DNA of 64,000 nucleotides from Rhodococcus pyridinivorans (GTDB taxonomy: Bacteria > Actinomycetota > Actinomycetes > Mycobacteriales > Mycobacteriaceae). Location: contig NZ_FNRX01000002.1 of assembly GCF_900105195.1 (NCBI RefSeq), forward strand, positions 992,001 through 1,056,000. Direction: 5' to 3'. How positions within the stretch are numbered: position 1 is the first letter of the stretch; every line of letters starts with the position of its first letter. A program made the position numbers and the translations under genes. The notes under the pieces were generated by a model. It searched no databases. It was not told the DNA's origin and was given only the letters and a program-made list of their open reading frames with translations. Below are positions 46,686-60,876 of the stretch, one piece after another.

Positions 46686-46729
46686 TTTACAAAAATCGAT
46701 TGACGTATCACGACTCATGTCTGTAACCT
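46686..46729 (+). promoter_or_regulatory. Island promoter A (shared TTTAC-N7-GATTGACGT element)
   Basis: TTTAC (46686-46690), seven bases, GATTGACG (46698-46705) containing the -35 TTGACG (46700-46705), an 18-nt spacer and -10 TAACCT (46724-46729). The same element occurs at 56736 and 60304. It drives the SDR gene at 46868. Confidence 0.75.
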
Positions 46730-46734
46730 CGATC

Positions 46735-46867
46735 ACAGCAACGTCGAGCGGACGCATTCTCGGAGTGCGGGGTTCCCCTCCCCGCAAGTCTCGTCGAACA
46801 ACGTTGTCTTTCAAACCTTCCCACTGCACAGGTATCTCCCTGGAACACATCGAGCGAAGGAGCTCCC
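46735..46867 (+). other. 130-nt leader of the SDR gene
   Basis: The 305-nt gap 46563-46867 holds the terminator, promoter A and this untranslated leader. The leader has a 7-bp GC hairpin (TGCGGGG 46766-46772 with CCCCGCA 46780-46786) and an ACAACGTTGT palindrome. No short ORF with a ribosome site was seen. The leader ends with CGAAGGAGCTCCC before the ATG. Confidence 0.45.
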
Positions 46868-47737
46868 ATGAAACTCGAAGGCAAGGTCGCGCTCATCACC
46901 GGCGCCGGCTCCGGCCTGGGCCGCGAGGCTTCCCAGCTGTTCGCGTCCGAGGGCGCGAAGATCGCGGTCGTCGACATCGACCCGGAGCGCGCCAAGGGCA
47001 CGGTCGAACTCGTCGAGCAGCAGGGCGGTAACGCCGTCGCGATCACCGCCGACGTGCGCAGCGAACAGCAGGTGAACGACGCCGTTGCTGCAACCGTCGA
47101 CGCATTCGGCAAGCTCGACATCGCCTGGGCCAACGCCGGAATCGTCTCGCGTGGCGGTGTTCCGTCCGTTGCGGGCGGTGAGCAGGTCGACTTCCAGGAC
47201 CTCACCGACGCCGACTGGCAGGACGTCGTCGGCGTCAACCTGTCCGGCGTGTTCTACACGGCCAAGGCCGCCGTGCCCCACCTGCGTGCCAACGGCGGTG
47301 GCGTCATCCTCGCGACCTCGTCGGCCGCATCGTTCGCTGCGTACCACAGCATCGCGATGTACTCCGCCACGAAGGCCGGCGTCAACGGCATGGTTCGTGG
47401 CCTCAGCCTCGACCTCGGCAAGTACGGAATCCGTGTCAACGCCGTCGCGCCCACCCACGGCATGTCACCGAACTTCCTGGCGCCCGCCGGAACTCCGGTG
47501 GTCGGGCAGTCGTACGAAGAGGTCGCCGGTCCGTGGGACCCGGGCATCTCGCCGATCCCGCTCAAGCTGAACCGCCCACCCTCACTGGGTGACAACGCGC
47601 GTGCTGCGCTGTTCCTGGTGTCCGACGACGCCGCGTACATCACGGGTCTCACACTGCCCGCCACCGACGGCGGTACCCTGTCCCGCGTCGCGATGATGTT
47701 CCCCGAGGACGAGCTGAAGCCGACGCTCGAGTCCTGA
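46868..47737 (+). CDS. Short-chain dehydrogenase/reductase (mycofactocin-type length)
   Basis: 289 residues. The NAD-binding TGAGSGLG (residues 11-18), NAG in WANAGIVS, catalytic Ser in ATSSAASF and YSATKAG give a complete classical SDR. An insertion of about 30 residues between strand beta-6 and the C-terminus (PNFLAPAGTPVVGQSYEEVAGPWD) is longer than in standard 250-residue SDRs and may bind a bulky substrate. It is probably an alcohol dehydrogenase for the hydroxylated product of the island's oxygenases. Confidence 0.9.
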   Translation: MKLEGKVALITGAGSGLGREASQLFASEGAKIAVVDIDPERAKGTVELVEQQGGNAVAITADVRSEQQVNDAVAATVDAFGKLDIAWANAGIVSRGGVPSVAGGEQVDFQDLTDADWQDVVGVNLSGVFYTAKAAVPHLRANGGGVILATSSAASFAAYHSIAMYSATKAGVNGMVRGLSLDLGKYGIRVNAVAPTHGMSPNFLAPAGTPVVGQSYEEVAGPWDPGISPIPLKLNRPPSLGDNARAALFLVSDDAAYITGLTLPATDGGTLSRVAMMFPEDELKPTLES

Positions 47738-47745
47738 GCCGAAAG

Positions 47746-47779
47746 GAGAAGGGGACCCGGATCACCGGGTCCCCTTCTC
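47746..47779. terminator. Bidirectional terminator between SDR and acyl-CoA dehydrogenase genes
   Basis: A perfect 15-bp stem (47746-47760 with 47765-47779), loop ATCA. It lies between convergent stops, so it can serve both strands. Confidence 0.85.
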
Positions 47780-47791
47780 GTCTTCCCTATC

Positions 47792-48943
47792 TCAGGACTT
47801 CATGAGATCGCGATGGATGATCTCCTTCATGATCTCGTTGGTGCCGCCGTAGATGCGCTGGATGCGTGCATCGATGAACGCCTTGGCGACCGGGTACTCC
47901 ATCATGTATCCGTAGCCGCCGTGGAACTGGACGCCGGCGTCGATGACGCGGCCCTGTAGTTCGGTCGCCCACAACTTCGCCTTCGATGCATCGACGGCGC
48001 TGAGTGTTCCCTTGTTGTATTCGCGGACGCACCGATCGATGTAGGTGCGTGAAACCTCCACCGCCGTCTGTAGTTCGGCGAGGGTGAAACCCATGCCCTG
48101 GAACTCACCGATCCGTTTTCCGAAGGCCGTACGTTCCTTCACGTAGTCGAGGGTCCATCGAATGACGGCCTCGGCGGACACCTGCGCTGCAATGCCGATG
48201 CCGAGGCGTTCGAGGGGCAGGCTCTGCATCAGGTAACCGAAGCCGGCCCCGAGTTCGCCCAGGAGATTCTCCTTCGGTACCCGTACGTCCTCGAAGAACA
48301 GTTCGGCGGTGTCCTGGGCGTGCAGCCCCACCTTGTCGAGTTTGCGTCCCCGCGAGAATCCGGACATGCCCTCTTCGACCACGAAGAGGCTGAAACCACG
48401 TGAACCCGCACTCGGATCCGTTCGAGCGAACACGATCACCAGGTCGGCGAGGATGCCGCTGGTGATGAAGGTCTTGGAACCGTTGAGCACCCAATGATCG
48501 CCGTCGCGCACCGCGGAGGTGGTGATGCCCCGCAGATCACTGCCGGCTGCCGGTTCGGTCATCGCGATCGCACCGATCGTCTCACCCGTGACGAAGCCTG
48601 GGAGCCAACGGCGTTTCTGTTCGTCGTTCGCGTGCCGGAGCAGATAGTTCAGGACGATGTCGTCATTGGTCGAGAAGCCCGACTGCAGCGCGGATGCGCC
48701 GACGCGTGCGATCTCCGACTGGATCACCACCCGGAAACGGTAATCCGTCTCCCCGGCTCCGCCGTATTCCTCCGGCACGGCGAGGCCGAGCAGTCCCTGT
48801 CGTCCGGCCGCGGTCCAGGTCTCGCGGTCGATCAGCCGGTCGGTGTCCCACTTCTCCACGTTGGGGACGACATATTTGTCCACGAATGCCCGGACGGAAT
48901 TCCGGAACAGCTCGTGGTCCTGCTCGAAGAGATCGCTCTCCAC
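47792..48943 (-). CDS. Acyl-CoA dehydrogenase of the Rieske operon
   Basis: 383 residues from GTG at 48943, 5 nt after AGGAGG. FAD motifs are AMTEPAAGSD and TFITSG; the C-terminus is FHGGYGYMMEYPVAKAF. The MCAD-type base is missing (IYGGTNE), and Glu245 in PLERLGI is the alternative base of long/branched-chain enzymes. It resembles the 8141 gene in layout but is clearly a different paralogue. It is expressed with the Rieske oxygenase 50 nt upstream. Confidence 0.92.
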   Translation of the reverse strand: MESDLFEQDHELFRNSVRAFVDKYVVPNVEKWDTDRLIDRETWTAAGRQGLLGLAVPEEYGGAGETDYRFRVVIQSEIARVGASALQSGFSTNDDIVLNYLLRHANDEQKRRWLPGFVTGETIGAIAMTEPAAGSDLRGITTSAVRDGDHWVLNGSKTFITSGILADLVIVFARTDPSAGSRGFSLFVVEEGMSGFSRGRKLDKVGLHAQDTAELFFEDVRVPKENLLGELGAGFGYLMQSLPLERLGIGIAAQVSAEAVIRWTLDYVKERTAFGKRIGEFQGMGFTLAELQTAVEVSRTYIDRCVREYNKGTLSAVDASKAKLWATELQGRVIDAGVQFHGGYGYMMEYPVAKAFIDARIQRIYGGTNEIMKEIIHRDLMKS

Positions 48944-48993
48944 AAATGCCTCCTGAGGCGGGCGCCCGTAGGCACCCGCCATGGTGTCGGTGG

Positions 48994-50163
48994 TCAGTCC
49001 TGGCCGACCAGTTTCTGGATTTCGCGTCGGAAGACCTGGTTGGCGACCTCGTTGCGGCCGAGGACCATGTTTCCGGCGTTGGCGCTGGTCATCGCGCGCT
49101 GCGAGTCGCGCAGAATCGGGAAGTCCTCGTTGTGCAGCACGGCGACGAGGATCTCGACGTTCTTGTCCCAGAGTCGGTTGTAGCGTTCCTCGGCCATCCC
49201 GCTGTTCTCGACCGTCGGGCAGATCAGACGGATCTCCATCCGGCACTGCTGCGGATCGGTCGGATGCGGGCGGAAGGTGAGCAGCTGGAAGTGATCCGGC
49301 TGCCGGAGCAGAGTGCTGTTGGGGCCTACGAAGTGGGTTTCGGTGGTGTGCTCGGCGAGGCTGCGGTCGCCGGGATCCTCTTCGATCCAGCGGTCGATCG
49401 TCTTGCGCAGGTTCATGAACCGGCAATGGTGACCGAAGTCCTCGAAGGACATGACGTTGGTGTGGATGTGCTTGGCCGCGGTGTTCGGATGCGCGTACTG
49501 GATGTGATAGCCGTCCAGGAAGGCGTCCTGCATGAGCTTCCAGTTGACGGGCTCCTCGAAGACCTGGACGCGCGTGGTCACGAGCGATCCGAGATCGTGC
49601 GAGGCCAGGATGGCGTCCATCTCGGGGCCGAGCCAGTCGGCGACGTCGATGGTCGCCTCGGCGTCGTCCACCACCCAGATGAACCCGTGTCGCTCCTCGG
49701 TGGGCAACTGCACGAGATTGCGCTTGTCACGGTCGGCCTCACCGAAGGTGTTGTCGCGGGTGATCGTGCGCAACGTGCCGTCGGTGTCGTACGACCAACG
49801 GTGGTACGGGCACGAGAACAGCCGGCAACGGCCCTTTTCCTCCTTCTCGACCATGGCGCCGCGGTGACGGCACTGGTTGACGAGGGTCTTGACGCTGCCG
49901 TCGCGCTGGCGGACGACGATGACGTTGTTCCGCGGCATCTGCAGGGTGAAGAAGTCGCCCGGCTTCGGGATCTCGGATCCGTGGGCGACGATCGTCGGAA
50001 GGCGGCCGAAGACGCGGTCCCGCTCGAGTTTCGCGACTGCCGGATCGACGAACTCGTTCGGTTCGAACCAGGTGAGGTGCTCGTACTCGTCGGTGGTGTC
50101 GTTGCGCAGATGATCGAGTGCGCGGCGAATGCGTTCCTCGGTGGGAATCCCGACCTCTGTCAT
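48994..50163 (-). CDS. Rieske non-heme iron oxygenase, alpha subunit
   Basis: 389 residues from ATG at 50163 after TGGAGGACAGCCC; further upstream in-frame codons cover the promoter. The Rieske [2Fe-2S] ligands are Cys98-x-His100 (NQCRHRG) and Cys118-x2-His121 (CPYHRW). The catalytic iron site has Asp217, His220 and His225 (LDGYHIQYAH). No beta subunit gene is present, so it is an alpha-only oxygenase. The PDR-type reductase at 55731 is the likeliest electron donor in the window. It probably hydroxylates or demethylates a ring or branched substrate. Confidence 0.92.
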   Translation of the reverse strand: MTEVGIPTEERIRRALDHLRNDTTDEYEHLTWFEPNEFVDPAVAKLERDRVFGRLPTIVAHGSEIPKPGDFFTLQMPRNNVIVVRQRDGSVKTLVNQCRHRGAMVEKEEKGRCRLFSCPYHRWSYDTDGTLRTITRDNTFGEADRDKRNLVQLPTEERHGFIWVVDDAEATIDVADWLGPEMDAILASHDLGSLVTTRVQVFEEPVNWKLMQDAFLDGYHIQYAHPNTAAKHIHTNVMSFEDFGHHCRFMNLRKTIDRWIEEDPGDRSLAEHTTETHFVGPNSTLLRQPDHFQLLTFRPHPTDPQQCRMEIRLICPTVENSGMAEERYNRLWDKNVEILVAVLHNEDFPILRDSQRAMTSANAGNMVLGRNEVANQVFRREIQKLVGQD

Positions 50164-50236
50164 GGGGCTGTCCTCCAGAGTCGTGCTGAAGCGTCGCCGG
50201 GTGGCCACGTCTTCGGCTGTCGTTCGGATCGTCGGC

Positions 50237-50268
50237 CTAAATCTAACTGATGTAGGTTTTAGTGTAAA
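50237..50268 (-). promoter_or_regulatory. Promoter and operator of the Rieske operon
   Basis: On the minus strand -35 TTTACA (50268-50263) and a -10 TTAGAT/TAGATT (50246-50240). A 26-bp imperfect palindrome (50237-50262; arms CTAAA and TTTAG, inner AC/GT) fills the spacer and the -10 box. Confidence 0.55.
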
Positions 50269-50317
50269 CCCTCGAATGCTTCCGGGAAGACCGTTCGAGG
50301 ATTGCTCGAAATATCGA

Positions 50318-50339
50318 TGACCATTAGATTCAGTGGTCA
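50318..50339. promoter_or_regulatory. TGACCA-N10-TGGTCA palindrome before the acetyltransferase gene
   Basis: Perfect 6-bp arms at 50318-50323 and 50334-50339, 28 nt before the ATG at 50367. This may be an operator for the rightward gene. It differs from the Rieske operator 56 nt away. Confidence 0.45.
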
Positions 50340-50366
50340 CAGTCCGGTGTGTGAGGAGCGAACGGA

Positions 50367-51359
50367 ATGATCTCGTATCAATGGTGTTCGGAGCTGGAAC
50401 CGGAAGATCGGGACGAAGTCCTCGGCCTCGTCGCGGCGGCCGCTGACTTCGACGAGGAGGCAGGCTTCTCGAAGATTCACCCGGCCGACGTCACCGCCAC
50501 GTCCGACGGGAGTGGGACGATCTTCCACCTCCCGGTCCAGGCGCGGCGCGACCTGAGCGCACGCGAGGACGCCCCGCTGGTTACCGTGGCCTATCTGCAC
50601 CTGAAGGTCGACGCCGAGGGCTACGGCACCGTGCAATTCGTCGTGCACCCCGACTACCGCTCCCGCGGTGTGGCCACCACGCTCGTGGAGGAGATGGGCC
50701 TGGACGCCGCCGTCGAGGGTGGCTGGCAGGGGACCGGGGCGCACGCCCTCCGCTGCTGGGCGTACAGCACCCACCCTGCCGCCGACCGCCTCACCCGGCG
50801 GTTCGACATCCGGGCTGCCGGACGGTTATGGACGATCTTCCGGCACCTGTCCGGACCGTTCGCCCATTCGCTGGAGCCCGTCACGGAGTTCGACGACGCC
50901 ACGATCGGCACCCCTCTCGCACTCGGGGACGCCGCGGCGCGCGAGGCGATCGATCACGTGCTCGACGCGTCCTCGCTCCCGGCGGTGCAACGCGAACGGC
51001 TCCTCGACGAGATCCGGCTCGGGAACGGGCATGTCGTCGTCGCCGAGGACGCGTCCGGCAAGCCCGCGGGATTCGTCTGGTACGACCCTGCGCTGTCGAT
51101 GCATCTCGAACTGCGGGCCGCGTGGATCCGCGCGCTCGTCCTCGCCGACGCCGTCCGCGGATCAGGCCTCGGTGCCGGCCTGCTCACCTCGGCGCTCGGG
51201 GCGCTGCGGGGCGCCGGCGCTCAGGTCGGCCTCATGCGGATCGATCCGGACAACGCTGCGGCAGTGCGGATGTGCCGGCTCATGTGGTTCGAGCAGGAAG
51301 AGGAGCACTCCTGCTTCCAGGTGGGGGATTGGGTCGGCATTCCAGGCTTCCGGCGCTGA
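50367..51359 (+). CDS. Tandem GNAT acetyltransferase, MshD-like
   Basis: 330 residues; ATG at 50367 after GAGGAGCGAACGGA. Two GNAT domains: the first has the acetyl-CoA loop VVHPDYRSRGVATTL, the second has ALVLADAVRGSGLGAGLL and IDPDNAAAVRMC. The tandem layout and length recall mycothiol synthase MshD (about 300 residues), but core MshD residues were not verified and its placement in a catabolic island is atypical. It may acetylate a small amine or a detoxification substrate. Confidence 0.7.
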   Translation: MISYQWCSELEPEDRDEVLGLVAAAADFDEEAGFSKIHPADVTATSDGSGTIFHLPVQARRDLSAREDAPLVTVAYLHLKVDAEGYGTVQFVVHPDYRSRGVATTLVEEMGLDAAVEGGWQGTGAHALRCWAYSTHPAADRLTRRFDIRAAGRLWTIFRHLSGPFAHSLEPVTEFDDATIGTPLALGDAAAREAIDHVLDASSLPAVQRERLLDEIRLGNGHVVVAEDASGKPAGFVWYDPALSMHLELRAAWIRALVLADAVRGSGLGAGLLTSALGALRGAGAQVGLMRIDPDNAAAVRMCRLMWFEQEEEHSCFQVGDWVGIPGFRR

Positions 51360-51390
51360 CTGCTTTACGAAAAACGCTTTCTGTCAGGTG

Positions 51391-51419
51391 TTGACCTAAA
51401 GCTTGTAGGCGGATATCTT
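51391..51419 (+). promoter_or_regulatory. Strong sigma70-like promoter of the second ALDH gene
   Basis: TTGACC (51391-51396), 17-nt spacer and TATCTT (51414-51419). A TTTACGAAAAACG stretch just upstream (51364-51376) is reminiscent of the TTTAC part of the island promoters. Confidence 0.7.
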
Positions 51420-51424
51420 TGTGT

Positions 51425-51633
51425 TGCGGCTCACACACGCGGGTGGCCGGTCCGCACCGTTCCGGTGCGTTGTCTTCTCGGTCGCTCCGTACGTCGGAGC
51501 ATGAGATCTCGTCGCGGAGAGGGCCCTCCACGGGTCTACTCGAAGGACGCCTCGCGCCCGCGTTACGTCACGGGAGTCCCCTTCCCTGTCGACGCCGGCT
51601 ACAACATCCGCTGAACCGAAGGAGCTTTCGCAC
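51425..51633 (+). other. ~210-nt structured leader of the second ALDH gene
   Basis: No coding sequence was recognised. Hairpins include CGCACCG-TTC-CGGTGCG (about 51457-51473) and GCTCCG-TACGT-CGGAGC (about 51483-51499). The end carries CGAAGGAGC before the ATG. Confidence 0.45.
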
Positions 51634-53121
51634 ATGACCACTACCGAAGCGGCGACCCCCACGGTCCCGACGTTCGCAGACCGCGACAAGGTCTTCATCG
51701 GCGGCCGCTGGGTCGAGTCGACCGGCAGCGAGTGGGTCGACGTCGTCGACTCGTTCAGTGAGCAGCGTGTCGCCCGCGTCCGCACGGCCACCGCGGAGGA
51801 CGTCACCCGCGCTGTCGTGGCTGCCCGCGAATCCTTCGACAAGGGCGAATGGGCGTCGAAGACCATGGAGGAGCGCGCCGCCGTCGTCGACGCGATCGCC
51901 GACGGCCTCCAGGCGCGGTTCGAGGAACTGACCGCCATCGGTGTCGCCGAGGTCGGCGTCCCGGTCGGCGTCAGCCATCAGACCCAGCAGATGATCGGCG
52001 GTCTCTTCCGCGCGGTCGCCGAGGTCGCCCGCAACTTCTCGACGTTCGAGGAACGCCCCCGGATGGGCGGTGGCGTCTCCCGCATCGTGAAGGAACCCAC
52101 CGGGGTGGTCGCGGCGATCATCCCCTGGAACGGCCCGATCGGGAACATCGCGTTCAAGCTGGCCCCGGCTCTCGCCGCCGGCTGCTCGGTCGTGCTCAAG
52201 ACGGCTCCGGACGCCCCGCTGTCGCCGTGCATCTTCGCCGACGTCATCGCCGAACTCGTCGAGCAGGGACGCATCCCCGAGGGCGTCGTAAGCGTGGTGT
52301 GCGCGGATCGCGAGGTGTCGGAGACACTCGTCACCAACCCCGATGTCGACCACGTCACCTTCACCGGCAGCACCGCCGCAGGACGCCGCATCATGGCACT
52401 GGCGAGCGAACGCATCGCCCGCGTGTCGCTCGAACTCGGCGGCAAGTCCGCGGCGATCATCCTCGACGACGCCGACATCGACCACGTCCTGCAGACCCTG
52501 CCCATGGGCGGGTGTCTGCAGACCGGCCAGGCATGTATCGCGCTCACCCGGGTCCTCGTGTCGAGGACGCGGCACGACGAGGTGCTCGAGGCTCTGAAGG
52601 CCGCTTACGGCGCTCTGCCGCTGGGTAATCCGTGGGAGCCCACGAACTTCCTCGGCCCCCTCGCCACCGAGCACCACCAGCAGCGGGTGCTCGGCTACAT
52701 CGACATCGCGAAGGAGGACGGCGCGAAGGTCGTGCTCGGCGGTGGCGTCCCCGAGGGCCTCGAGAAGGGCTTCTTCGTCGCGCCGACCCTGCTCGACGGT
52801 GTCGCCCCCGACTCGCGGATCGCACAGGAGGAGGTCTTCGGCCCGGTGATCTCGGTGATCACCTACGAGGACGAGGAGGACGCGATCGCGATCGCGAACA
52901 ACTCGATCTACGGCCTCTCCGGCGCCGTCTACACCGAGGACATCGACCGCGGTTACGAGATCGCGCGCCGCATCCGCACCGGCACGATCAGCGTCAACAC
53001 CTCGGCCATGGACTTCTCGTTGCCGTTCGGCGGCTACAAGCAGTCCGGCATCGGCCGTGAGGGTGGCCCCGAGGGACTCGAGGAGTTCTTCGAGATCAAG
53101 ACCGTGCACATGCCCGCCTAG
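51634..53121 (+). CDS. Aldehyde dehydrogenase
   Basis: 495 residues. NAD-binding PWNGPIGNIAFKLAPALAAG and FTGSTAAGR; general base Glu267 (LELGGKS) and nucleophile Cys301 (TGQACIA). It differs enough from the 42635 gene (substrate-channel sequences, MGGGVSRIVKEP) to have another substrate. It is monocistronic with a strong promoter and terminator. Confidence 0.93.
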   Translation: MTTTEAATPTVPTFADRDKVFIGGRWVESTGSEWVDVVDSFSEQRVARVRTATAEDVTRAVVAARESFDKGEWASKTMEERAAVVDAIADGLQARFEELTAIGVAEVGVPVGVSHQTQQMIGGLFRAVAEVARNFSTFEERPRMGGGVSRIVKEPTGVVAAIIPWNGPIGNIAFKLAPALAAGCSVVLKTAPDAPLSPCIFADVIAELVEQGRIPEGVVSVVCADREVSETLVTNPDVDHVTFTGSTAAGRRIMALASERIARVSLELGGKSAAIILDDADIDHVLQTLPMGGCLQTGQACIALTRVLVSRTRHDEVLEALKAAYGALPLGNPWEPTNFLGPLATEHHQQRVLGYIDIAKEDGAKVVLGGGVPEGLEKGFFVAPTLLDGVAPDSRIAQEEVFGPVISVITYEDEEDAIAIANNSIYGLSGAVYTEDIDRGYEIARRIRTGTISVNTSAMDFSLPFGGYKQSGIGREGGPEGLEEFFEIKTVHMPA

Positions 53122-53143
53122 GGACTCCACTGGGGTGGAAGAG

Positions 53144-53176
53144 CAACGGGGCCTCGCGATTCGCGAGGCCCCGTTG
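53144..53176 (+). terminator. Terminator of the second ALDH gene
   Basis: A perfect 15-bp stem (53144-53158 with 53162-53176) and a 3-nt loop, followed by a G/T stretch. It lies between convergent genes. Confidence 0.8.
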
Positions 53177-53208
53177 TGCATGCGGGAAACGAATACGCAG
53201 CGCCGTCC

Positions 53209-53844
53209 TCAGGATTGCTCGGCGTCGTCCTCGTTGCGCATCACGCCGTACAGGAAGCTGCGGATCATCTCCTCGAACAGTTGCTTCGAGGTCATCGCGT
53301 TCTCAGCGAGGGCTCGCGCGAGCATCGGCCGGGACTCGGGATCGACGTTCGGGAAGATGGTCGACTTCGTGCTCGGGGGGCGCATCGCCTCGGTCAGCAC
53401 CGCGCCGAGCGTCAGACGCTCCATGCCGTCCAGGATCTGCACGTGCAACCGGGCGGGTACCCCCGAGGCCTCCAGGAAGGCCGCGGTCTCCTCATAGGTG
53501 CCGATGAGCACGTCGCGCGGCAGGTACTGCAGCAGGATCGGGGCCGCGTTGCGGTGCTTGAGGATCGATCGGCGCAGGTTGAGACTGAGCGTCACGAAGT
53601 ACTCGGGCCAGTCCGGGCCGGGCTTGCGGCGGGGCATCGGGCCCGCGCCGGCGATCTGTCGTGCAACCGCGGAGAGGATCTCCGACTTGTCGGAGAAGTG
53701 GTGGTAGAGCGAGGGCGCGCGCACCCCGAGATGCTTCGCGAGACGCGGGAGACTGAAGGCTTCGAGTCCTTCGGAGTCGATGATCTCGATGGACGCGGCC
53801 ACCGCGGCCGCGCGACTGATGAGCGGTTTCGACGGTCGGGCCAT
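53209..53844 (-). CDS. TetR-family regulator
   Basis: 211 residues from ATG at 53844. The helix-turn-helix is LEAFSLPRLAKHLGVRAPSLYHHFSDKSEIL. The C-terminal part (YFVTLSLNLRRSILKHRNAAPILLQYLPRD) fits the TetR_C ligand domain of regulators with hydrophobic effectors. It is the third gene of a leftward operon with an SDR and an alpha/beta hydrolase. It is a candidate for the palindromes at the SDR/reductase divergent promoter. Confidence 0.9.
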   Translation of the reverse strand: MARPSKPLISRAAAVAASIEIIDSEGLEAFSLPRLAKHLGVRAPSLYHHFSDKSEILSAVARQIAGAGPMPRRKPGPDWPEYFVTLSLNLRRSILKHRNAAPILLQYLPRDVLIGTYEETAAFLEASGVPARLHVQILDGMERLTLGAVLTEAMRPPSTKSTIFPNVDPESRPMLARALAENAMTSKQLFEEMIRSFLYGVMRNEDDAEQS

Positions 53845-53921
53845 GTCTCGCTTTCGGCTGGTACGTCGGGCATCGATGCCCGGTGGCTGCCTGGAATGGT
53901 ATCGGCTCTCGTCGGCAGGCC

Positions 53922-54797
53922 TCACGACGTGAGGACGGACCCCTCGAGGAACTCGATCAGGCCCGTGCTCAGCACGTCGTTGTCGTCGCCACTCACCATG
54001 TGCCCGGCTCCGCTCACGTCGATGTGCCGGGCCCCCGGGATCAGGTCGAGCAGTTCGTTCGCACCCTCGTCGCTGACGACGTCGGACTGGGCACCGCGGA
54101 TCAGGAGAGTGGGGACGGTGACGGCGCGGGCGGCGGCCCGGGCGCGTTCCTCCCGGGCGATCTCCGCCGCGATCAGCTTCTCGCGGTCGGAGAGCAGCCG
54201 CGGATCCCAGTGCCAGTACCACCGGCCGCCCCGGTGGCGCAGGTTCTTGCGCAGCCCGTCCTTGCGGGGCGGACGCCGACGGTTCGGGTTGTACGCAATG
54301 ACCGCCTCGAGCGCGTCGTCGAGGCTGTCGAAGCCGTCGAGACCGGCACGCATGAACTCGGTGATCCGGGAGATGCCCTCGAGTTCGGCCCTGGGGGTGA
54401 TGTCCACCAGGACCAGGGCGCGGACGAGCCCGGGATCTTCCCCCGCCGTGACGAGCGAGGCCAGCCCACCCATGGACGCACCCACCAGGACGGGACTCTC
54501 ACCGAGGGAGTCGGCGACCGCCCGGATGTCGCGGGCGTGGGCGTCGGGGGAATAGTCGCCGTCGGCGGCCCACTCGCTGTCCCCGTGACCGCGCGCGTCG
54601 ATCGTGTAGGCCCGCCAGCCGTGCTCGGCGAGCCGACGGCCGGTGCGTTGCCACGAGTGCCGGGTCTGGCCACCGCCGTGCAGGAGCAGCACGGCCCCCT
54701 TGTTGCCGTGGTTCCCGGAGGCGTCGGGTCGCCACAGATCGGCGCTCAGACGCAGTCCGTCGCCCCGCAGGTCCATGGTCTCGGTGGAGATGGTCAC
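53922..54797 (-). CDS. Alpha/beta hydrolase (Ser nucleophile)
   Basis: 291 residues, GTG start at 54797. Oxyanion LLLHGGGQTRHSW (39-49), nucleophile Ser108 in VGASMGG, and His in SGAGHMVSGD complete the triad, with Asp likely in RGAQSDVVSDEG. The cap domain around 150-225 is rich in Arg and Trp. It probably is an esterase, lactonase or C-C hydrolase. It lies 31 nt after the SDR gene and is co-transcribed with it. Confidence 0.9.
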   Translation of the reverse strand: MTISTETMDLRGDGLRLSADLWRPDASGNHGNKGAVLLLHGGGQTRHSWQRTGRRLAEHGWRAYTIDARGHGDSEWAADGDYSPDAHARDIRAVADSLGESPVLVGASMGGLASLVTAGEDPGLVRALVLVDITPRAELEGISRITEFMRAGLDGFDSLDDALEAVIAYNPNRRRPPRKDGLRKNLRHRGGRWYWHWDPRLLSDREKLIAAEIAREERARAAARAVTVPTLLIRGAQSDVVSDEGANELLDLIPGARHIDVSGAGHMVSGDDNDVLSTGLIEFLEGSVLTS

Positions 54798-54828
54798 GAG
54801 TCGAGCCCCCTTCGTCGGCGCGGGCAGG

Positions 54829-55620
54829 TCAATGTCCGGACGTTCCGCCGTCCACCGCGAGCGTCGAGCCCGTGACGTACCCGGAGGCAGGACTCGCCAG
54901 GAAGATCACGGCGGCGTCGATCTCGCGCTGAGTGGCGGTGCGGCCCAGCGAACTACCACGCAGGAACTCTGCGAGCGTATCCGACGACATCTCGGAGATG
55001 AGGTCCGTCTCGACGAAGCCGGGTGCGACGGCATTGACCCGTATGCCCTTGCGTTGCGCCCACTGGTGTGAGAGGTCGCGGGTCAGTCCGATCAGTCCCG
55101 CTTTGCTCGCGGCGTACGCGGCCTGGGGGAGAACCGACTTGATCAATCCGAGCATGCTCGCGACGTTGACGATGCTCGAACCGGGTTCCATTACTCGTGC
55201 ACACGACTGGGCGGCCCAGTAGCTGCCCATGAGATTGACGTCGAGCACCGAGCGGAAATCTTCGGGCCGTTCATGTGTGGCCGGTGCGGCATGGGTGACA
55301 CCGGCATTGTTGACGAGAATGTCGAGTCGGCCGAACTCCTCGATCGTGGTGCGCGCGACCATCTCGCACTGTTCCGGGTCGGTGACGTCGGTGGGAACGA
55401 CGAGGCAACGACGACCGGCGTCCTCGACGGTCTCGGCGACAGCTTCGAGCCGATCACGTCGTCGTGCTGCGACGACCACGTCGGCGCCCGCCTCGGCGAG
55501 TGCCCGCGCGAAGCCGGCTCCCAGCCCGCTGCCGGCTCCCGTGACGACGGCGACACGGCTGTCGAGCCGGAAGAGATCGAGTACCGAACCCGTCTCGGGG
55601 GCGATGTCTGTCGAGGTCAT
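54829..55620 (-). CDS. Short-chain dehydrogenase/reductase
   Basis: 263 residues, ATG at 55620. TGAGSGLG (28-35), NNAG (VNNAGVTH), Ser in NVASMLG, YAASKAG, and PGFVETDL make a complete classical SDR. It probably oxidises a hydroxyl group or reduces a ketone of a ring compound. It is the first gene of the leftward operon, divergent from the oxygenase reductase. Confidence 0.92.
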   Translation of the reverse strand: MTSTDIAPETGSVLDLFRLDSRVAVVTGAGSGLGAGFARALAEAGADVVVAARRRDRLEAVAETVEDAGRRCLVVPTDVTDPEQCEMVARTTIEEFGRLDILVNNAGVTHAAPATHERPEDFRSVLDVNLMGSYWAAQSCARVMEPGSSIVNVASMLGLIKSVLPQAAYAASKAGLIGLTRDLSHQWAQRKGIRVNAVAPGFVETDLISEMSSDTLAEFLRGSSLGRTATQREIDAAVIFLASPASGYVTGSTLAVDGGTSGH

Positions 55621-55664
55621 GGGCGTCTCCCTGGGCTGTTGCGGAACGGACTCCCGGCGGACTG

Positions 55665-55700
55665 TTGCGTCCCATAAAACTAATTACATAAGATTATATG
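55665..55700. promoter_or_regulatory. Divergent AT-rich promoter/operator between SDR and reductase
   Basis: For the rightward gene TTGCGT (55665-55670), an 18-nt spacer and TAAGAT (55689-55694). An imperfect 28-bp palindrome (55673-55700; arms CATA-x-AA and TT-x-TATG) overlaps it and also offers TATAAT for the leftward operon. Confidence 0.5.
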
Positions 55701-55730
55701 GCACGTGAAGTCCAGGGAAGCGAGACGCCG

Positions 55731-56693
55731 ATGACTGCAGACCCCGCTACCGGCAACCGCAAGTTGCAGGTGATCGGCAAGGACGTGCTCGCGGACGGTG
55801 TCGTCGCCGTGCGACTTGCCGATCCGGACGGCAATCCTGTCCCCGCGTGGGATCCCGGTTCGCATATAGACCTCGTCATCGACGAATCGACCGTGCGGCA
55901 GTACTCGTTGTGCGGTGACGTCGAGGATCGCACGTGTCTGACGGTCGCCGTGCTCCGCGAGGAGAACGGCCGAGGAGGGTCGCGCTGGGTGCACGATTCG
56001 TTGCAGATGGGCGACCTCGTCGGCATCGGTGGGCCGCGCAACAACTTCCGGTTCGACACCACCTCCGACTGTCTCTTCGTCGCAGGCGGAATCGGCATCA
56101 CGCCGTTGCTCCCGATGCTCCGCGCCGCCGACGCGGCGGGAGTGAACTGGCGGTTGTTGTACGGCGGACGAACCCGCAGCAGCATGGCCTTCGCCGACGG
56201 TCTCGCCACCGGTCATCCGGATCGCGTGGAGATCAGGCCGCAGGACGAGTTCGGGCTCCTCGATCTCGCCGGCACGCTCGACGCACTGCCGGAAGGCTCC
56301 TCGGTCTACTGCTGTGGGCCGGAACCGCTCCTGCAAGCGATCGAGGACGCATGTCGTGCCCGGATCGGAATCACCCTTCATGTCGAACGTTTCGCAGCCA
56401 AGGAACGATCCGCCGACGCGGTCGACGGCACCTTCGAGGTCGAACTCGCGCGATCCGGCGTCGGCATCACGGTCGGGACCGACGAGTCCCTGCTCGATGC
56501 TGTGTTGCGGTCCGGGGTCGACGTGCCGTTCTCGTGCCGGGAGGGGACATGTGGCACGTGCGAGGTTACGGTGATGCACGGAGAGCCCGATCATCGGGAT
56601 TCGGTCCTGACCGAGGGCGAGCAGGCCGCGAACGACTGCATGATGATCTGCGTGTCCCGGAGTCGGACACCGAAACTCGTCCTGGAGTTGTAG
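55731..56693 (+). CDS. Phthalate-dioxygenase-type oxygenase reductase (FMN, NAD, 2Fe-2S)
   Basis: 320 residues from ATG at 55731 behind AGGGAAGCGAG; the ATG at 55698 lies at or before the predicted transcript start. Domain order: flavin-binding RQYSLC (56-61), NAD-binding GGIGITP (119-125) and CCGPEP, and a C-terminal plant-type [2Fe-2S] site with Cys269, 274, 277 and 307. This is class IA (VanB/PDR). It passes electrons from NADH to a Rieske oxygenase; the alpha subunit at 48994 is the only such enzyme visible. Confidence 0.93.
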   Translation: MTADPATGNRKLQVIGKDVLADGVVAVRLADPDGNPVPAWDPGSHIDLVIDESTVRQYSLCGDVEDRTCLTVAVLREENGRGGSRWVHDSLQMGDLVGIGGPRNNFRFDTTSDCLFVAGGIGITPLLPMLRAADAAGVNWRLLYGGRTRSSMAFADGLATGHPDRVEIRPQDEFGLLDLAGTLDALPEGSSVYCCGPEPLLQAIEDACRARIGITLHVERFAAKERSADAVDGTFEVELARSGVGITVGTDESLLDAVLRSGVDVPFSCREGTCGTCEVTVMHGEPDHRDSVLTEGEQAANDCMMICVSRSRTPKLVLEL

Positions 56694-56735
56694 ACATATA
56701 ACACGTCCGACGATGATCCGTGCGGATTATTTCAG

Positions 56736-56778
56736 TTTACAAAATATGATTGACGTCTCATGTAATACCGGATAGCGT
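56736..56778 (+). promoter_or_regulatory. Island promoter B (shared TTTAC-N7-GATTGACGT element)
   Basis: TTTAC (56736-56740), seven bases, GATTGACG (56748-56755), with -35 TTGACG (56750-56755), a 17-nt spacer and -10 TAGCGT (56773-56778). TTACA and TGTAA also form distant inverted arms here. Confidence 0.78.
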
Positions 56779-56784
56779 GTGCGT

Positions 56785-56941
56785 CACGGAGTCGGGGGCG
56801 GCCGCCGCTTCGGTGCATCCCCTCGAAGTTCTTGCCGAACAACTTTGTTCGGCAGAACTTGTGTACCGATTCCGAGACGCCGCCCCCGCCCGCATCAGCA
56901 TTGCGCCGACATACCGGTGCGACTCACGAAAGGGAACCAGC
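56785..56941 (+). other. ~155-nt highly structured leader of the CoA-ligase gene
   Basis: A 14-bp hairpin with a bulged T (56826-56840 with 56847-56860) sits inside a long-range 10-bp GC stem (CGGGGGCGGC 56793-56802 with GCCGCCCCCG 56879-56888). No ORF with a ribosome site was found. The ribosome site GAAAGGGAACC lies beyond the closing stem. Confidence 0.55.
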
Positions 56942-58459
56942 ATGGCTTCCACCGTCGGTTCGGCCCTGCATTGGTGGGCGAAGACCAAGGGAGAGCAGAA
57001 CGCGATCGTCGTTGCGGACGAAGCACTCACCTACCGAGAACTCCAGGATTGGTCCAGCCGTGTCGCGCGCACCATCGTCGACCGGGGCGTCGAAGCCGGA
57101 CAACGTGTCGGCGTACTCGGCCCGAACTCGTTGACGTGGCCCGTCGTCGCGCTGGGTGTGCTCAAGGCCGGCGCGGTGCTCGTACCGCTCAACCCGCGCT
57201 ACAAGCCGGCCGAACTCCGCAAGGTCGCAGACGATTCGGGCCTGACCCTGGTGGTCACCCCGAGCGAGTTCACGACGGTCGTCGACGATGCCCGCGCTCT
57301 CGGCGATACCTTCGACATCCTCGAATTCTCCGACATCGTTCCCCTGCGCGAGGGTGGGCAGGACGACTTCCGCATCGACGTCGGGCCCGACGAACCGACG
57401 GCCGTGTTGTTCACCAGCGGCTCCACGGGTATGTCGAAGGGGGTCATCTGCACCAACCGGACATTGCTCAACATCGTCTTCGAAGCGACCCTCACCGAGG
57501 AGGGTTTCCGTCCCGGCTCGACCTCGCTCCTGGTCCTCCCGCTGGTCTTCACGCCGGGCCTTGTCTGGGGCCTGGTCATGACCACCGTGCTCGGCGGCAC
57601 CCTCGTCGTGGAGAAGGAACTCGATCCGAACCGCGCCGCGAGGCTCCTCGGTGAGCACAACGTCCAGGCGATCTTCGGTGTACCGCTCATCTTCGACGCG
57701 ATCTCGCGGTCTCCCGAGTTCGAGAAGGCAGACCTGTCGTCGTTGCGGACCGCCATCGTCGGGGGTGCCGCCGTCGCGCCGGTACTGCTGAAGCGATGGG
57801 CGGACAAGGGCGTTGCGCTGCGCCAGATCTACGGCATGACCGAGGCCGGTGGCGTCGCCACCGCCACTCTCGTGGCCGAAGCGTTCGATCATCCGGATTC
57901 GTGCGGCTCGGGCTCGATCTTCACCGAACTCAAGGTTGTGCGCGACGACGGCACCGAAGCGGCACCGGGGGAGGAGGGCGAGATTCTCCTGCGTGGTCCG
58001 GGCGTGACTCCCGGCTACTGGAACGACCCCGATTCCACCGCGACCGCTCTGCGTGACGGATGGCTGCACAGCGGTGACCTGGGTACCCGCGACGCGGAGG
58101 GCCGCGTCAAGTTCGTGGACCGGCTCAAGGACCTCATCATCACCGGCGGAATCAACGTCTCGCCCGTGGAGATCGAACGCGTCATCGGCGAGCTCCCGGG
58201 TGTCCAGGAAGTCGCTGTGATCGCTGCGTCCGACGAGCGTTTCGGCGAGACTCCCGCGGCCATCGTCACCGTCGAGAACGGTGTCGACGAAGCGACGATC
58301 ATCGAACACTGCGACCGGCTCATGGCGGACTACAAGGTTCCGCGCTACGTCGTGATCCGCGACGAGCCCCTGCCGCGGCTCCCCAGTGGCAAGCTGTCGA
58401 AGACGGCGATCCGATCCGAGTACAAGGACGTCGCCGATCGATTCGACAAGGTCCGCTGA
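56942..58459 (+). CDS. Acyl-CoA synthetase (AMP-forming)
   Basis: 505 residues from ATG at 56942. ANL motifs: FTSGSTGMSKG (P-loop), QIYGMTEAGG, LHSGDLGTRDAEGRVKFVDRLKD, and catalytic Lys in LPSGKLSKTAIR. The compact N-terminus and PLNPRYKPAELRKVADDSG are typical of cyclohexane/aromatic-acid and short-chain ligases. It activates an acid produced by the island's ALDHs or the exogenous substrate. The crotonase gene follows after 34 nt. Confidence 0.92.
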   Translation: MASTVGSALHWWAKTKGEQNAIVVADEALTYRELQDWSSRVARTIVDRGVEAGQRVGVLGPNSLTWPVVALGVLKAGAVLVPLNPRYKPAELRKVADDSGLTLVVTPSEFTTVVDDARALGDTFDILEFSDIVPLREGGQDDFRIDVGPDEPTAVLFTSGSTGMSKGVICTNRTLLNIVFEATLTEEGFRPGSTSLLVLPLVFTPGLVWGLVMTTVLGGTLVVEKELDPNRAARLLGEHNVQAIFGVPLIFDAISRSPEFEKADLSSLRTAIVGGAAVAPVLLKRWADKGVALRQIYGMTEAGGVATATLVAEAFDHPDSCGSGSIFTELKVVRDDGTEAAPGEEGEILLRGPGVTPGYWNDPDSTATALRDGWLHSGDLGTRDAEGRVKFVDRLKDLIITGGINVSPVEIERVIGELPGVQEVAVIAASDERFGETPAAIVTVENGVDEATIIEHCDRLMADYKVPRYVVIRDEPLPRLPSGKLSKTAIRSEYKDVADRFDKVR

Positions 58460-58493
58460 GCCTTCGCTCGGAGGACCCGGGAAAGGAGCCACC

Positions 58494-59339
58494 GTGTCCG
58501 AGACCGGTACCGAGAACTCGGTAGTTCTCGAACGTCACGGCGAGATTGCCGTGATACGACTGAACCGCCCCGATCGCCTCAACGCGTTCACCGACGAGAT
58601 GGGTGAACGGCTCATCGCACTGTTCGACGAGACGGATGCCGACGACGACGTGCGCGCCGTCGTCGTCACCGGAACGGGGCGGGGGTTCTGCGCCGGTGCC
58701 GATCTCGCGGCCGGGGGAGACACGTTCGTCCTCGGCGACGACCCCGAGACGGGTGGGGCACCGCCGGATCTGGGCGGACGTGTCACTCTGCGGATCTACC
58801 GGTCGCTCAAGCCCGTGATCGCGGCGATCAACGGCCCGGCCGCAGGCGTGGGGGTGACGATGACGCTTCCGGCCGACGTCCGCATCGCCGCGGATACGGC
58901 GAAGTTCGGGTTCGTCTTCACCCGTCGAGGCCTGGTTCCGGAGGCATGCTCGACGTGGTTCCTGCCGCGGGCCGTCGGGATCTCGACCGCGGTCGAATGG
59001 ACTGTGGGCGGAAAGATGGTGCCGGTCACCGAGGCTCTCGAGCGGGGCCTCGTCCGCGAAGTGCTGCCGGTCGGACAGCTCCTCGACCGAGCCATCGCGA
59101 TCGCGCGGGAGATGGTGTCCGGTACGGCACCGGTCTCGGTAGCGCTGACCAGGCAGTTGATGTGGCGGATGCTCGGGGCGGCCGGCCCCGAGGTCGCACA
59201 CCGCGCCGAGTCGATCGGTATTCACGTGCGAGGCACGTCCGACGACGTCAGGGAGGGTGTCGAGGCATTCCTCGACAAGCGCGAACCGAAATTCCCGAAC
59301 CGCGTCTCGGACGGTCTGCCGGAGCTGTTCGATCTGTAA
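58494..59339 (+). CDS. Crotonase-fold enoyl-CoA isomerase-like protein
   Basis: 281 residues from GTG at 58494 behind GAAAGGAGCC. FCAGADLAAG is normal. At the first hydratase Glu there is Thr122 (GPAAGVGVTMTLPAD) and at the second Phe (FGFVFTRRG), while RRGLVPEACSTWFLPR keeps the Glu150 typical of the Delta3-Delta2-enoyl-CoA isomerase subgroup. An isomerase is therefore more likely than a hydratase. It is co-transcribed with the CoA ligase. Confidence 0.88.
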   Translation: MSETGTENSVVLERHGEIAVIRLNRPDRLNAFTDEMGERLIALFDETDADDDVRAVVVTGTGRGFCAGADLAAGGDTFVLGDDPETGGAPPDLGGRVTLRIYRSLKPVIAAINGPAAGVGVTMTLPADVRIAADTAKFGFVFTRRGLVPEACSTWFLPRAVGISTAVEWTVGGKMVPVTEALERGLVREVLPVGQLLDRAIAIAREMVSGTAPVSVALTRQLMWRMLGAAGPEVAHRAESIGIHVRGTSDDVREGVEAFLDKREPKFPNRVSDGLPELFDL

Positions 59340-59373
59340 CGACGGCCGGCTCGGCCGGTCGATGGATCCGCTC

Positions 59374-59409
59374 ACTCGGCCCTCTCCCGGACTCGGGAGA
59401 GGGCCGAGT
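59374..59409 (+). terminator. Terminator after the ligase-crotonase operon
   Basis: A perfect 16-bp stem (59374-59389 with 59394-59409) with loop GACT, 34 nt after the stop. Confidence 0.85.
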
Positions 59410-59464
59410 CGTGTCCGAGGCGGTTACCATGGGCGCAGCGAGCACTCGGTGACAACTGACGAAT

Positions 59465-59499
59465 CTTGTAACATCTGCCGTGTACACGGCAACGACAAG
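59465..59499 (+). promoter_or_regulatory. TetR gene promoter with GCCGTGT/ACACGGC palindrome
   Basis: TAACAT (59469-59474) is a -10 candidate. A perfect 14-bp palindrome (59477-59490) lies where transcription should start, flanked by outer arms CTTGT (59465-59469) and ACAAG (59495-59499). It is probably an autoregulatory operator. Confidence 0.55.
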
Positions 59500-59513
59500 G
59501 CAGGAGCTGCGGC

Positions 59514-60170
59514 ATGGCGCGACGGCGGTCGAGTGTCCTCGGCGACGACGCGGAAACAGCGCGCGGCAAGATCCTGAAGGCCGCCGAGGCGATGTTCCTG
59601 CGTTACGGGGTCGTGAAGACGACCATGGACGACATCGCGAAGGAAGCCGGAGTCTCGCGACCGACGGTGTACCGCTATTTCGGAGATCGCGACTCGCTGA
59701 TCATCGCGTTGATCGAGACGAGATCGCGCCGGCTCTTCGACAAGGCTCGCGACTATCTGCGCGAACGGTCGACGTTCGCCGAGCAGATCGTGGACGGTCT
59801 GATCTTCCTCGTCGACCGCGGACGCCAGGATCCCATCGTTCGGCTGATCGTCAGTCCCGAGCACATGGACATGGCCACTGCGCTGGTGGGCAGCAGTGGG
59901 CTCGCGGCGCGGTTGACCTACGAGATGTGGGCTCCTCTGCTGGAAGAGGCCCGTGCCCGCGGTGAGATCCGTGACGGACTCACCGACGAAGAGATCTGCC
60001 AGTGGATCGCTCTGGTGCAGCTCATCCTGGTGGGGCGCATGGACTTCAACTCCGACGACGATCCCGACAACCGTCGGATGCTCACCAATTTCCTGTTGCC
60101 GTGCATCGTCGACGATGCGCCGCCGGCGCGGCGTCCTCGTGCAGCGGCCGCCCGTCGCTCGCGCGGGTAG
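59514..60170 (+). CDS. TetR-family regulator, paralogue 1
   Basis: 218 residues, ATG at 59514. N-terminal HTH: VKTTMDDIAKEAGVSRPTVYRYFGDRDSL. The C-terminal domain shares long identical blocks with the regulator at 62217 (SPEH.D, RLT.EMWAPLLE.AR.RGEIRDG.TD.EIC.WI.LV.LILVGRMDF), so they are recent paralogues. A basic tail (RPRAAAARRSRG) is unique to this copy. It is a likely controller of the P450 operon and perhaps of the shared island promoters. Confidence 0.92.
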   Translation: MARRRSSVLGDDAETARGKILKAAEAMFLRYGVVKTTMDDIAKEAGVSRPTVYRYFGDRDSLIIALIETRSRRLFDKARDYLRERSTFAEQIVDGLIFLVDRGRQDPIVRLIVSPEHMDMATALVGSSGLAARLTYEMWAPLLEEARARGEIRDGLTDEEICQWIALVQLILVGRMDFNSDDDPDNRRMLTNFLLPCIVDDAPPARRPRAAAARRSRG

Positions 60171-60303
60171 TTCACAAGTCCGACGCAGTCTTTCACGCGT
60201 CGACCCTTCGACCGGGTGCGTCCACCGCGCCCGGTCCTCCGCGTTTTCGCCGACTCTTTAGGGCTTGTCCGACAAGACGCGTCGCCACGACAGGGCGAAT
60301 CAA

Positions 60304-60347
60304 TTTACAAATTTCGATTGACGTAACATGGAACATGTGGGTAATCT
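60304..60347 (+). promoter_or_regulatory. Island promoter C (shared TTTAC-N7-GATTGACGT element)
   Basis: TTTAC (60304-60308), seven bases, GATTGACG (60316-60323), with -35 TTGACG (60318-60323), an 18-nt spacer and -10 TAATCT (60342-60347). The spacer length and a downstream TCAC match promoter A. Confidence 0.78.
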
Positions 60348-60353
60348 GGGTCA

Positions 60354-60634
60354 CATAGATCGGACGCCGACCGATCGAGTTCTCGAAAGGTCGGTAACGG
60401 TCGAACTGTGCCGAAGGATCACCCTGTCCGGCGGCACATCCCGATTCTCGCGTTTCATCCACCGGGCATAGGAGCCCGGCCGGAACCGGGTGTGCATCGG
60501 CACTGTCCGCCGAGGCGGCGCAAGTGATTTCGGTGCCGCTGCGTGCATCCGCTACTTTCCCGTGATCGTCTGTCGGGGAAGAGACTTCGGCCGGATTGCT
60601 AGGCAGGCAACGTTCGAAAGGACTGGACAGAACT
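60354..60634 (+). other. ~280-nt untranslated leader of the ferredoxin-P450 operon
   Basis: The 464-nt gap 60171-60634 holds the 3' region of the TetR gene, promoter C and this leader. The leader is GC-rich, with local inverted repeats (e.g. CCCGG/CCGGG near 60475-60492). No convincing small gene was found. It ends CGAAAGGACTGGACAGAACT before ATG 60635, a long spacing. Confidence 0.45.
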
Positions 60635-60853: not shown

Positions 60854-60876
60854 GGGGCCGACCCAGAGGAAGATTC

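What the first reader, a model, noticed from the sequence alone, without database searches (positions are those of the whole stretch)
46686..60347. Three transcription units share a near-identical promoter element
At 46686, 56736 and 60304 the sequence TTTAC-N7-GATTGACGT-NN-CA recurs with the same geometry: the -35 TTGACG lies inside the element and a -10 box follows 17-18 nt later. The N7 parts are A/T-rich in all three. These units encode an SDR, a CoA ligase plus crotonase, and ferredoxin plus P450. Such long identity in non-coding DNA implies one regulator or sigma factor binding all three.
Basis: seen in the sequence. Interest (0 to 1): 0.72.

Follow-up and report, generated by a model that had tools for sequence, protein, structure and literature searches.

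The report
TetR-controlled promoters of a catabolic gene set
Three promoters in this Rhodococcus gene island carry the same control element, which recurs in related soil bacteria and resembles a site at a neighbouring repressor gene, so that repressor probably switches a degradation pathway on and off.

Summary
The element occurs without mismatch at the three stated places and nowhere else in the 5.26 Mb genome; the next matches have 3 mismatches, the chance level. Each copy holds a -35 TTGACG with a -10 TAnnnT 17-18 nt later. That layout is kept in 34 of 36 non-redundant copies from this and related genomes.

Best reading: a TetR operator laid over a sigma-70-type promoter. The likely reader is the TetR protein at 59514-60170 (TetR1), possibly with its 67% identical paralogue TetR2. 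In 401 family genomes, the 31 with a genuine element all have a TetR1 orthologue (>=58% identity). Four more TetR1 genomes had no hit in that scan; three of these carry it in a slightly different form. TetR1's own promoter often carries a related palindrome. A matrix from TetR1 promoters alone has its best hit on the element in 50 of 52 target promoters, far above permuted matrices, though the exact register varies.

In 5 Gordonia genomes the element also precedes an aldehyde dehydrogenase-mce operon. No special sigma factor is needed. DNA binding, repression, inducer and substrate are not shown. It is a new example of a known kind of regulon.

The parts
46687..46715 (+). operator-like element 1 (29-nt form), upstream of the SDR unit; contains -35
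   Evidence: found upstream of SDR1 orthologues
46700..46729 (+). promoter 1: -35 TTGACG 46700-46705, -10 TAACCT 46724-46729, spacing 18
   Evidence: geometry kept in 34 of 36 copies
46722..46737 (+). CRP/GlxR-like site TGTAACCTCGATCACA (1 mismatch to TGTGA-N6-TCACA), overlapping the -10
46868..47737 (+). SDR oxidoreductase (best NCBIfam hit is the mycofactocin-coupled subfamily, below its cut-off)
55698..56693 (+). ferredoxin reductase-like protein (Fer2 + NAD_binding_1), just upstream of element 2
56737..56765 (+). operator-like element 2, upstream of the CoA ligase unit; contains -35
56750..56778 (+). promoter 2: -35 TTGACG 56750-56755, -10 TAGCGT 56773-56778, spacing 17
56942..58459 (+). 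acyl/aryl-CoA ligase (AMP-binding)
58386..59339 (+). crotonase / enoyl-CoA hydratase (longest ORF; true start probably inside it)
   Evidence: (NF006109 above cut-off)
59375..59408 (+). strong G+C hairpin between crotonase and TetR1
   Evidence: z -5.1
59450..59474 (+). palindromic element in the TetR1 promoter (TKACAA-N10-TTGTAAC form), presumed autoregulatory operator
   Evidence: only 0-mismatch match to that form in the genome
59514..60170 (+). TetR1, proposed reader of the element
60305..60333 (+). operator-like element 3, upstream of ferredoxin-P450; contains -35
   Evidence: also 2 mismatches to the TetR1-promoter pattern
60318..60347 (+). promoter 3: -35 TTGACG 60318-60323, -10 TAATCT 60342-60347, spacing 18
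60340..60355 (+). CRP/GlxR-like site GGTAATCTGGGTCACA, overlapping the -10
   Evidence: read from the sequence; class of site
60635..60853 (+). small ferredoxin
   Evidence: Fer4_15 and Fer4_13; sequence; orthologues next to P450
60877..62112 (+). cytochrome P450
62217..62837 (+). TetR2, paralogue of TetR1 (67% identity)

Best explanation
The element is the operator of the TetR-family protein TetR1 (59514-60170), laid over three ordinary sigma-70/sigma-A promoters so that it covers the -35 box and part of the spacer. Without inducer, TetR1 (perhaps also TetR2) sits there and blocks RNA polymerase. When a substrate-derived ligand binds TetR1 it lets go, and the SDR, CoA ligase-crotonase and ferredoxin-P450 units are switched on together. 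TetR1 also limits itself through a related palindrome in its own promoter. Shown by computation: the element, its promoter geometry, its restriction to this island, its conservation, its co-occurrence with TetR1 and the related sequence at TetR1. Inferred: physical binding, repression rather than activation, induction by a pathway compound, and a hydrophobic cyclic (alicyclic, terpenoid or similar) substrate.
For: (1) Only three copies in the genome, all within 13.6 kb and all at promoters. (2) In 401 family genomes at <=1 mismatch: 37 genomes and 57 places, against 6 reversed-control places. After setting aside 6 genomes whose only hits are mraZ-type coding hits (3) or a flavin-monooxygenase promoter (3), the 31 left all have TetR1 >=58% identical; TetR1 occurs in 35 of 401. 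Within the genus: 7 of 7 with the element have TetR1, 0 of 11 without it do. (3) Matrices trained on Gordonia sites and tested elsewhere, and the reverse: match at p<0.01 upstream of 39 of 42 valid SDR1 rows. Many of those loci were fetched because of the element; in loci fetched by P450 or TetR1 homology it is 14 of 17. (4) 26 of 40 TetR1 promoters carry an anchored element with a dyad that 0 of 300 column shuffles equal. A matrix from these alone has its best hit on the element, at offset 0 or +-7, in 50 of 52 target promoters. With redundancy removed, the mean best score is 15.1, against at most 4.9 for 400 column-permuted matrices. (5) TetR HTH domain and TetR-like fold.
Against: No binding or expression data. 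Co-occurrence is partly what a shared cluster would give, and one search scored only 7 candidates per genome. The element itself is not a clean palindrome: dyad centres 18.5 (10 of 400 shuffles as good) and 15.0 (18 of 400) and a 14-nt direct repeat (2 of 300) compete. The register of the TetR1-promoter matrix is not fixed: offset 0 on the same strand in 29 of 52, but offset -7 in 24 of 35 after redundancy removal with a shifted matrix. 14 of 40 TetR1 promoters lack the anchored element, and 8 of these score below 5. With the target matrix only 5 of 45 TetR1 upstream regions reach p<0.01 (30 of 45 p<0.05), and GNAT genes also give 5 of 11 at p<0.05, so that looser line is lenient. G309 has TetR1 but no element at <=3 mismatches in the 20 kb fetched. 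In the window the TetR1 palindrome matches the three elements at only 14, 14 and 17 of 25 bases (>=14 at 42 places among about 128,000).
Confidence: 0.75

Rival explanations
1. TetR2 (62217-62837), or TetR1 and TetR2 together, reads the element; the paralogues share operators and sense different ligands.
For: 67% identity with nearly the same HTH; TetR2 sits directly behind the P450 driven by element 3.
Against: Hits best assigned to TetR2 were seen only in genomes of the window's genus, whereas the element also occurs in Gordonia, Nocardia and Williamsia (some Gordonia loci, and genus g22, do have a second TetR1-like copy at 42-72%). 0 of 6 TetR2 upstream regions hold the element at p<0.01.
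Confidence: 0.3
2. TetR1 acts as an activator, or another regulator (a CRP/GlxR-type protein, or one encoded elsewhere) is the main controller, and the TetR1 link is secondary.
For: A CRP-like site lies near the start in 30 of 36 copies (shuffle mean 4, max 9). Part of the element lies upstream of the -35, where activators can sit. In Gordonia the mce operon with the element has its own double-TetR gene beside it (one locus scanned).
Against: The CRP-like site shifts position between promoter groups while the element does not, so it looks like a separate input; the element tracks TetR1.
Confidence: 0.15
3. The element is an extended promoter for a special sigma factor or an UP-element promoter, with no dedicated regulator.
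For: It contains -35 TTGACG and A/T-rich sequence upstream.
Against: Only 3 copies in the genome; conserved bases lie outside the hexamers; ordinary -35/-10 spacing; related sequence in TetR1 promoters without TTGACG.
Confidence: 0.05
4. The likeness is a relic of promoter duplication, not of shared control.
For: In several relatives SDR1 and ferredoxin-P450 stand behind one element, here behind two, so one copy may have arisen by rearrangement; 46686 and 60304 also share 27 of 60 downstream bases.
Against: Upstream flanks are unrelated, and the element is kept across genera whose flanks have diverged.
Confidence: 0.04

Closest known systems
TetR-family catabolic repressors of Mycobacteriales such as KstR, KstR2 and AlkX (recalled; an AlkX paper was seen only as a search listing; an AlkX structure is among the fold hits)
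   Same: A TetR-type regulator in or beside an oxidative catabolic cluster, several promoters sharing one operator, presumed autoregulation, operator at the promoter
   Different: KstR/KstR2 motifs are recalled and were not compared by tool; TetR1 has no close solved relative by sequence (best PDB E 5.7e-11, N-terminal part); different gene content
TetR proteins that bind long operators as pairs of dimers, e.g. QacR (binding mode recalled; QacR is among the fold hits)
   Same: Matches to the element at offsets of 7 nt would fit two overlapping dyads
   Different: Stoichiometry untested; the symmetry signal in the element is weak
Mce-transporter regulons such as Mce4/KstR and Mce3R (recalled; Mce3R is a weak N-terminal hit)
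   Same: In 5 Gordonia genomes the element precedes an aldehyde dehydrogenase-MlaE/MlaD (yrbE/mce) operon
   Different: In the window's genome only three copies of the element exist, none before an mce operon; TetR1 is a single TetR, while a double TetR protein sits beside the Gordonia operon

Membership tests
TetR/AcrR transcriptional regulators (TetR1) | N-terminal TetR HTH domain above Pfam's gathering score | tested here: met
   PF00440 57.7 bits against 24.0
TetR/AcrR transcriptional regulators (TetR1) | All-helical TetR fold with a C-terminal ligand/dimer domain | tested here: met
   AlphaFold2 single chain, mean pLDDT 81.5, pTM 0.72; the Foldseek hits listed are TetR-type proteins, best E 8.4e-6, query TM 0.35-0.62 in the 50 rows shown
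TetR/AcrR transcriptional regulators (TetR1) | Palindromic operator in its own promoter (common, not universal) | tested here: inconclusive
   Anchored element in 26 of 40 promoters, best dyad centre equalled by 0 of 300 column shuffles; 8 of the other 14 score below 5
TetR/AcrR transcriptional regulators (TetR1) | Sequence-specific binding relieved by a ligand | not testable with these tools
   needs protein and DNA
Sigma-70-type promoter | -35 TTGACn and -10 TAnnnT at 16-19 nt | tested here: met
   3 of 3 in the window; 34 of 36 copies at 17-18 nt, shuffle mean 2.0, max 8
Promoter of an alternative sigma factor | Promoter hexamers distinct from the housekeeping type | tested here: not met
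   hexamers and spacing are of housekeeping type
KstR / KstR2 regulon | KstR or KstR2 operator motif at the promoters | not tested
   motifs only recalled; sequence similarity to solved KstR2 is weak (E 3.7e-6, N-terminal part)

The most novel reading that the evidence does not exclude
TetR1 and its operator define an unrecognised regulon of Rhodococcus, Gordonia, Nocardia and Williamsia that couples Mce-type uptake (in some Gordonia), P450-Rieske-SDR oxidation and CoA-thioester breakdown of one class of hydrophobic, perhaps terpenoid or alicyclic, compound, with a CRP-type site as a second gate. This would give an orphan Mce transporter a pathway and hence a guessable substrate.
Probability: 0.38. 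Interest if true: 0.6.

Novelty: new member of a known kind. Interest (0 to 1): 0.45.

Why it matters
It turns a sequence likeness into a named regulator, an operator and a target list that one gel shift could test. It suggests which of many clustered genes belong to one pathway, and it links an mce operon of unknown cargo to a P450-initiated pathway. Operator and repressor would also make a small sensor pair once the inducer is known.

Tried and rejected
Chance occurrence: rejected. Special sigma factor: rejected on promoter geometry and rarity. Promoter duplication: rejected on upstream flanks. Riboswitch or other known RNA in 41000-64000, considered because element 3 lies almost 300 nt ahead of the ferredoxin: no Rfam match at gathering threshold. 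Feruloyl-CoA/vanillin pathway: the CoA ligase's top two PDB hits, nearly equal in score, are a fatty-acyl-CoA synthase entry and a feruloyl-CoA synthetase, but P450, SDR and Rieske genes do not fit that pathway simply, so no substrate is claimed.

Hits dropped before counting: four mraZ-type hits (L067, L084, L086, L088; MraZ confirmed by Pfam for three, L067 judged by its like sequence), three before a flavin monooxygenase (L109-L111; one scanned), and one L071 site at 7588. The G258 place at C1:6014892 was not fetched. In one search, rows placed beyond 250 nt are an indexing error; one search recounts without them: SDR1 39 of 42, ACS 8 of 38, ALDH2 5 of 29, mce aldehyde dehydrogenase 4 of 18, TetR1 5 of 45 and Fdx 1 of 8 at p<0.01; P450 0 of 45, crotonase 0 of 21, CoA transferase 0 of 13, TetR2 0 of 6, ALDH1 0 of 13, FdR 0 of 16, SDR2 0 of 16, GNAT 0 of 11. 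Most of these loci were fetched because they hold the element. The 58% identity line for TetR1 was set after seeing the gap between 58% and 52%.

Literature (search listings with abstract starts only; no paper was opened). None of the titles listed is on this element or this TetR. One search searched six short strings of the element; its 17 papers look unrelated by title. The lists were capped, and subscription journals are not held.
Full report
OBSERVATION. The whole 5.26 Mb genome has three exact copies, these; the next matches have 3 mismatches and are about as common as for the reversed pattern (3 against 2; 12 against 34). Each copy holds -35 TTGACG, and a -10 TAnnnT follows after 18, 17 and 18 nt. 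The elements share 20-22 of 25 bases pairwise; upstream flanks share only 12-18 of 60, downstream flanks 17, 18 and 27 of 60.

GENES. Downstream are an SDR (46868), a CoA ligase (56942) with a crotonase, and a ferredoxin (60635) with a P450 (60877). Between and around them lie aldehyde dehydrogenases, a class III CoA transferase, a second SDR, a ferredoxin reductase-like protein, an acyl-CoA dehydrogenase, a Rieske oxygenase, and the two TetR genes TetR1 (59514) and TetR2 (62217), which are 67% identical. A strong hairpin (59375-59408) separates the crotonase from TetR1, so TetR1 probably has its own promoter here.

CONSERVATION. Among 18 genomes of the genus, 6 have the element at <=1 mismatch (13 places; no control hits). 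Among 401 genomes drawn from the family, a slightly wider pattern hits 37 genomes at 57 places, against 6 places for the control. I fetched regions around these and annotated them with the window's proteins. Genuine copies lie before SDR1-ferredoxin-P450 units, before CoA-ligase units or, in five Gordonia genomes, before an operon of aldehyde dehydrogenase, MlaE-type permease and MlaD/Mce proteins (domains scanned in one of the five). Seven fetched hits are something else (four mraZ-type, three before a flavin monooxygenase) and were dropped; one place (G258, C1:6014892) was not fetched.

WHO READS IT. TetR1 orthologues (>=58% identity) are in 35 of 401 genomes (7 candidates scored per genome). 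The 31 genomes with a genuine element are all among them; the 6 genomes with only spurious hits are not. Of the 4 TetR1 genomes without a hit, three carry the element at 1-2 mismatches to a form allowing A or C at one place, and one (G309) showed none in the 20 kb fetched. Eight genomes with a more distant TetR (48-52%) have no element hit. In named relatives of that kind (R. koreensis L033, R. jostii L035) only the right part survives, and in Aldersonia (L034) hardly that.

This association is partly expected from cluster linkage, so I looked for independent links. First, orthologues of the mce-linked aldehyde dehydrogenase (65% identity or more) are in 15 of 52 Gordonia genomes, all 15 among the 18 with TetR1. 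Five of the 15 have the element in front of it; in the other 10 none was found in the 250 nt upstream, and a double TetR protein beside the operon is a rival controller there. Second, 26 of 40 TetR1 promoters carry an anchored element with a dyad, for example GTTACAAG-N8-CTTGTAAC in one Gordonia locus (L068). In the window it is at 59450-59474, the only exact match to that form in the genome. A matrix made from those TetR1 promoters alone has its best hit on the target element, at offset 0 or +-7 on either strand, in 50 of 52 target promoters, 29 of them at offset 0 on the same strand; the other 2 (L026, L027) have it 42 nt upstream. With redundancy removed (15 TetR1 sites, 35 targets) the mean best score is 15.1, while 400 column-permuted matrices have a mean of -0.8 and a maximum of 4.9; there the commonest offset is -7 (24 of 35), so which dyad corresponds to which is not settled. 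The target matrix run on TetR1 upstream regions is weaker: 5 of 45 at p<0.01 and 30 of 45 at p<0.05, and GNAT genes give 5 of 11 at p<0.05, so the looser line is lenient.

SYMMETRY. The target element alone is only weakly symmetric: centre 18.5 (10 of 400 column shuffles as good), centre 15.0 (18 of 400), or a 14-nt direct repeat (2 of 300). TetR1 promoters favour centre 18.5 (0 of 300). With the 7-nt offsets, I read it as two overlapping imperfect dyads of the form TKACA-N12-YGTMA, which would suit two TetR dimers. This is an inference of moderate weight.

MECHANISM. The element spans the -35 and part of the spacer, so a bound TetR protein would shut out RNA polymerase. Across 36 non-redundant copies, 34 keep TAnnnT 17-18 nt after TTGACG (shuffle mean 2.0, max 8), so polymerase use and operator are conserved together. 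A second input is likely: 30 of 36 copies have a CRP-like TGTGA-N6-TCACA site at <=3 mismatches (shuffle mean 4, max 9; the CRP consensus is recalled). It starts 2 nt before the -10 in most Rhodococcus copies and in some Nocardia copies, 8-10 nt after the -10 start in other Nocardia copies, and 14-16 nt after it in Gordonia. That it moves while being kept argues that it is a separate site.

KNOWN RELATIVES. TetR1 is a TetR protein by domain and fold without a close solved relative. The regulon would work like other TetR catabolic regulons; I found no paper on this operator or regulator in the library available (listings only). It is a new member of a known kind. The substrate is open: SDR1's best PDB hits include cyclohexanol and carveol dehydrogenases, the P450's include an ancestral CYP125 and CYP101-type enzymes, and the CoA ligase's top two are a fatty-acyl-CoA synthase entry and a feruloyl-CoA synthetase. 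These point to hydrophobic cyclic compounds but do not decide.

Noticed in passing
46722-46737, 60340-60355; 36 non-redundant promoters in related loci: Conserved CRP/GlxR-like site near the start site in 30 of 36 copies, at a group-specific position.
   Followed up: partly
L069, L070, L072, L075, L085 about 10 kb into each locus: In five Gordonia genomes the same element precedes an aldehyde dehydrogenase-MlaE/MlaD (mce) operon; in L085 a 437-aa protein with two TetR domains and a divergent crotonase lie beside it.
   Followed up: partly
46868 and 60635-62112: SDR1 and ferredoxin-P450 are split here, each with its own element, while several relatives have one SDR1-ferredoxin-P450 unit behind a single element.
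   Followed up: partly
L099:1492-1784: In one relative (G008) the ferredoxin-P450 unit between the two TetR genes is reduced to fragments while both TetR genes remain.
   Followed up: no
L175, L176, L178-L181, L073, L082 upstream of the mce-linked aldehyde dehydrogenase: Other Gordonia copies of the mce operon carry a different conserved stretch, roughly GTGATTGACRTCACGTMTGA, instead of the element.
   Followed up: no
L026, L027: A TetR1-promoter-like match 42 nt upstream of the element scores better than the element itself.
   Followed up: no
L109, L110, L111: A flavin-monooxygenase-led unit (one of three scanned) in genomes G223, G172 and G215, which have no TetR1 hit, has a promoter one mismatch from the element.
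   Followed up: partly
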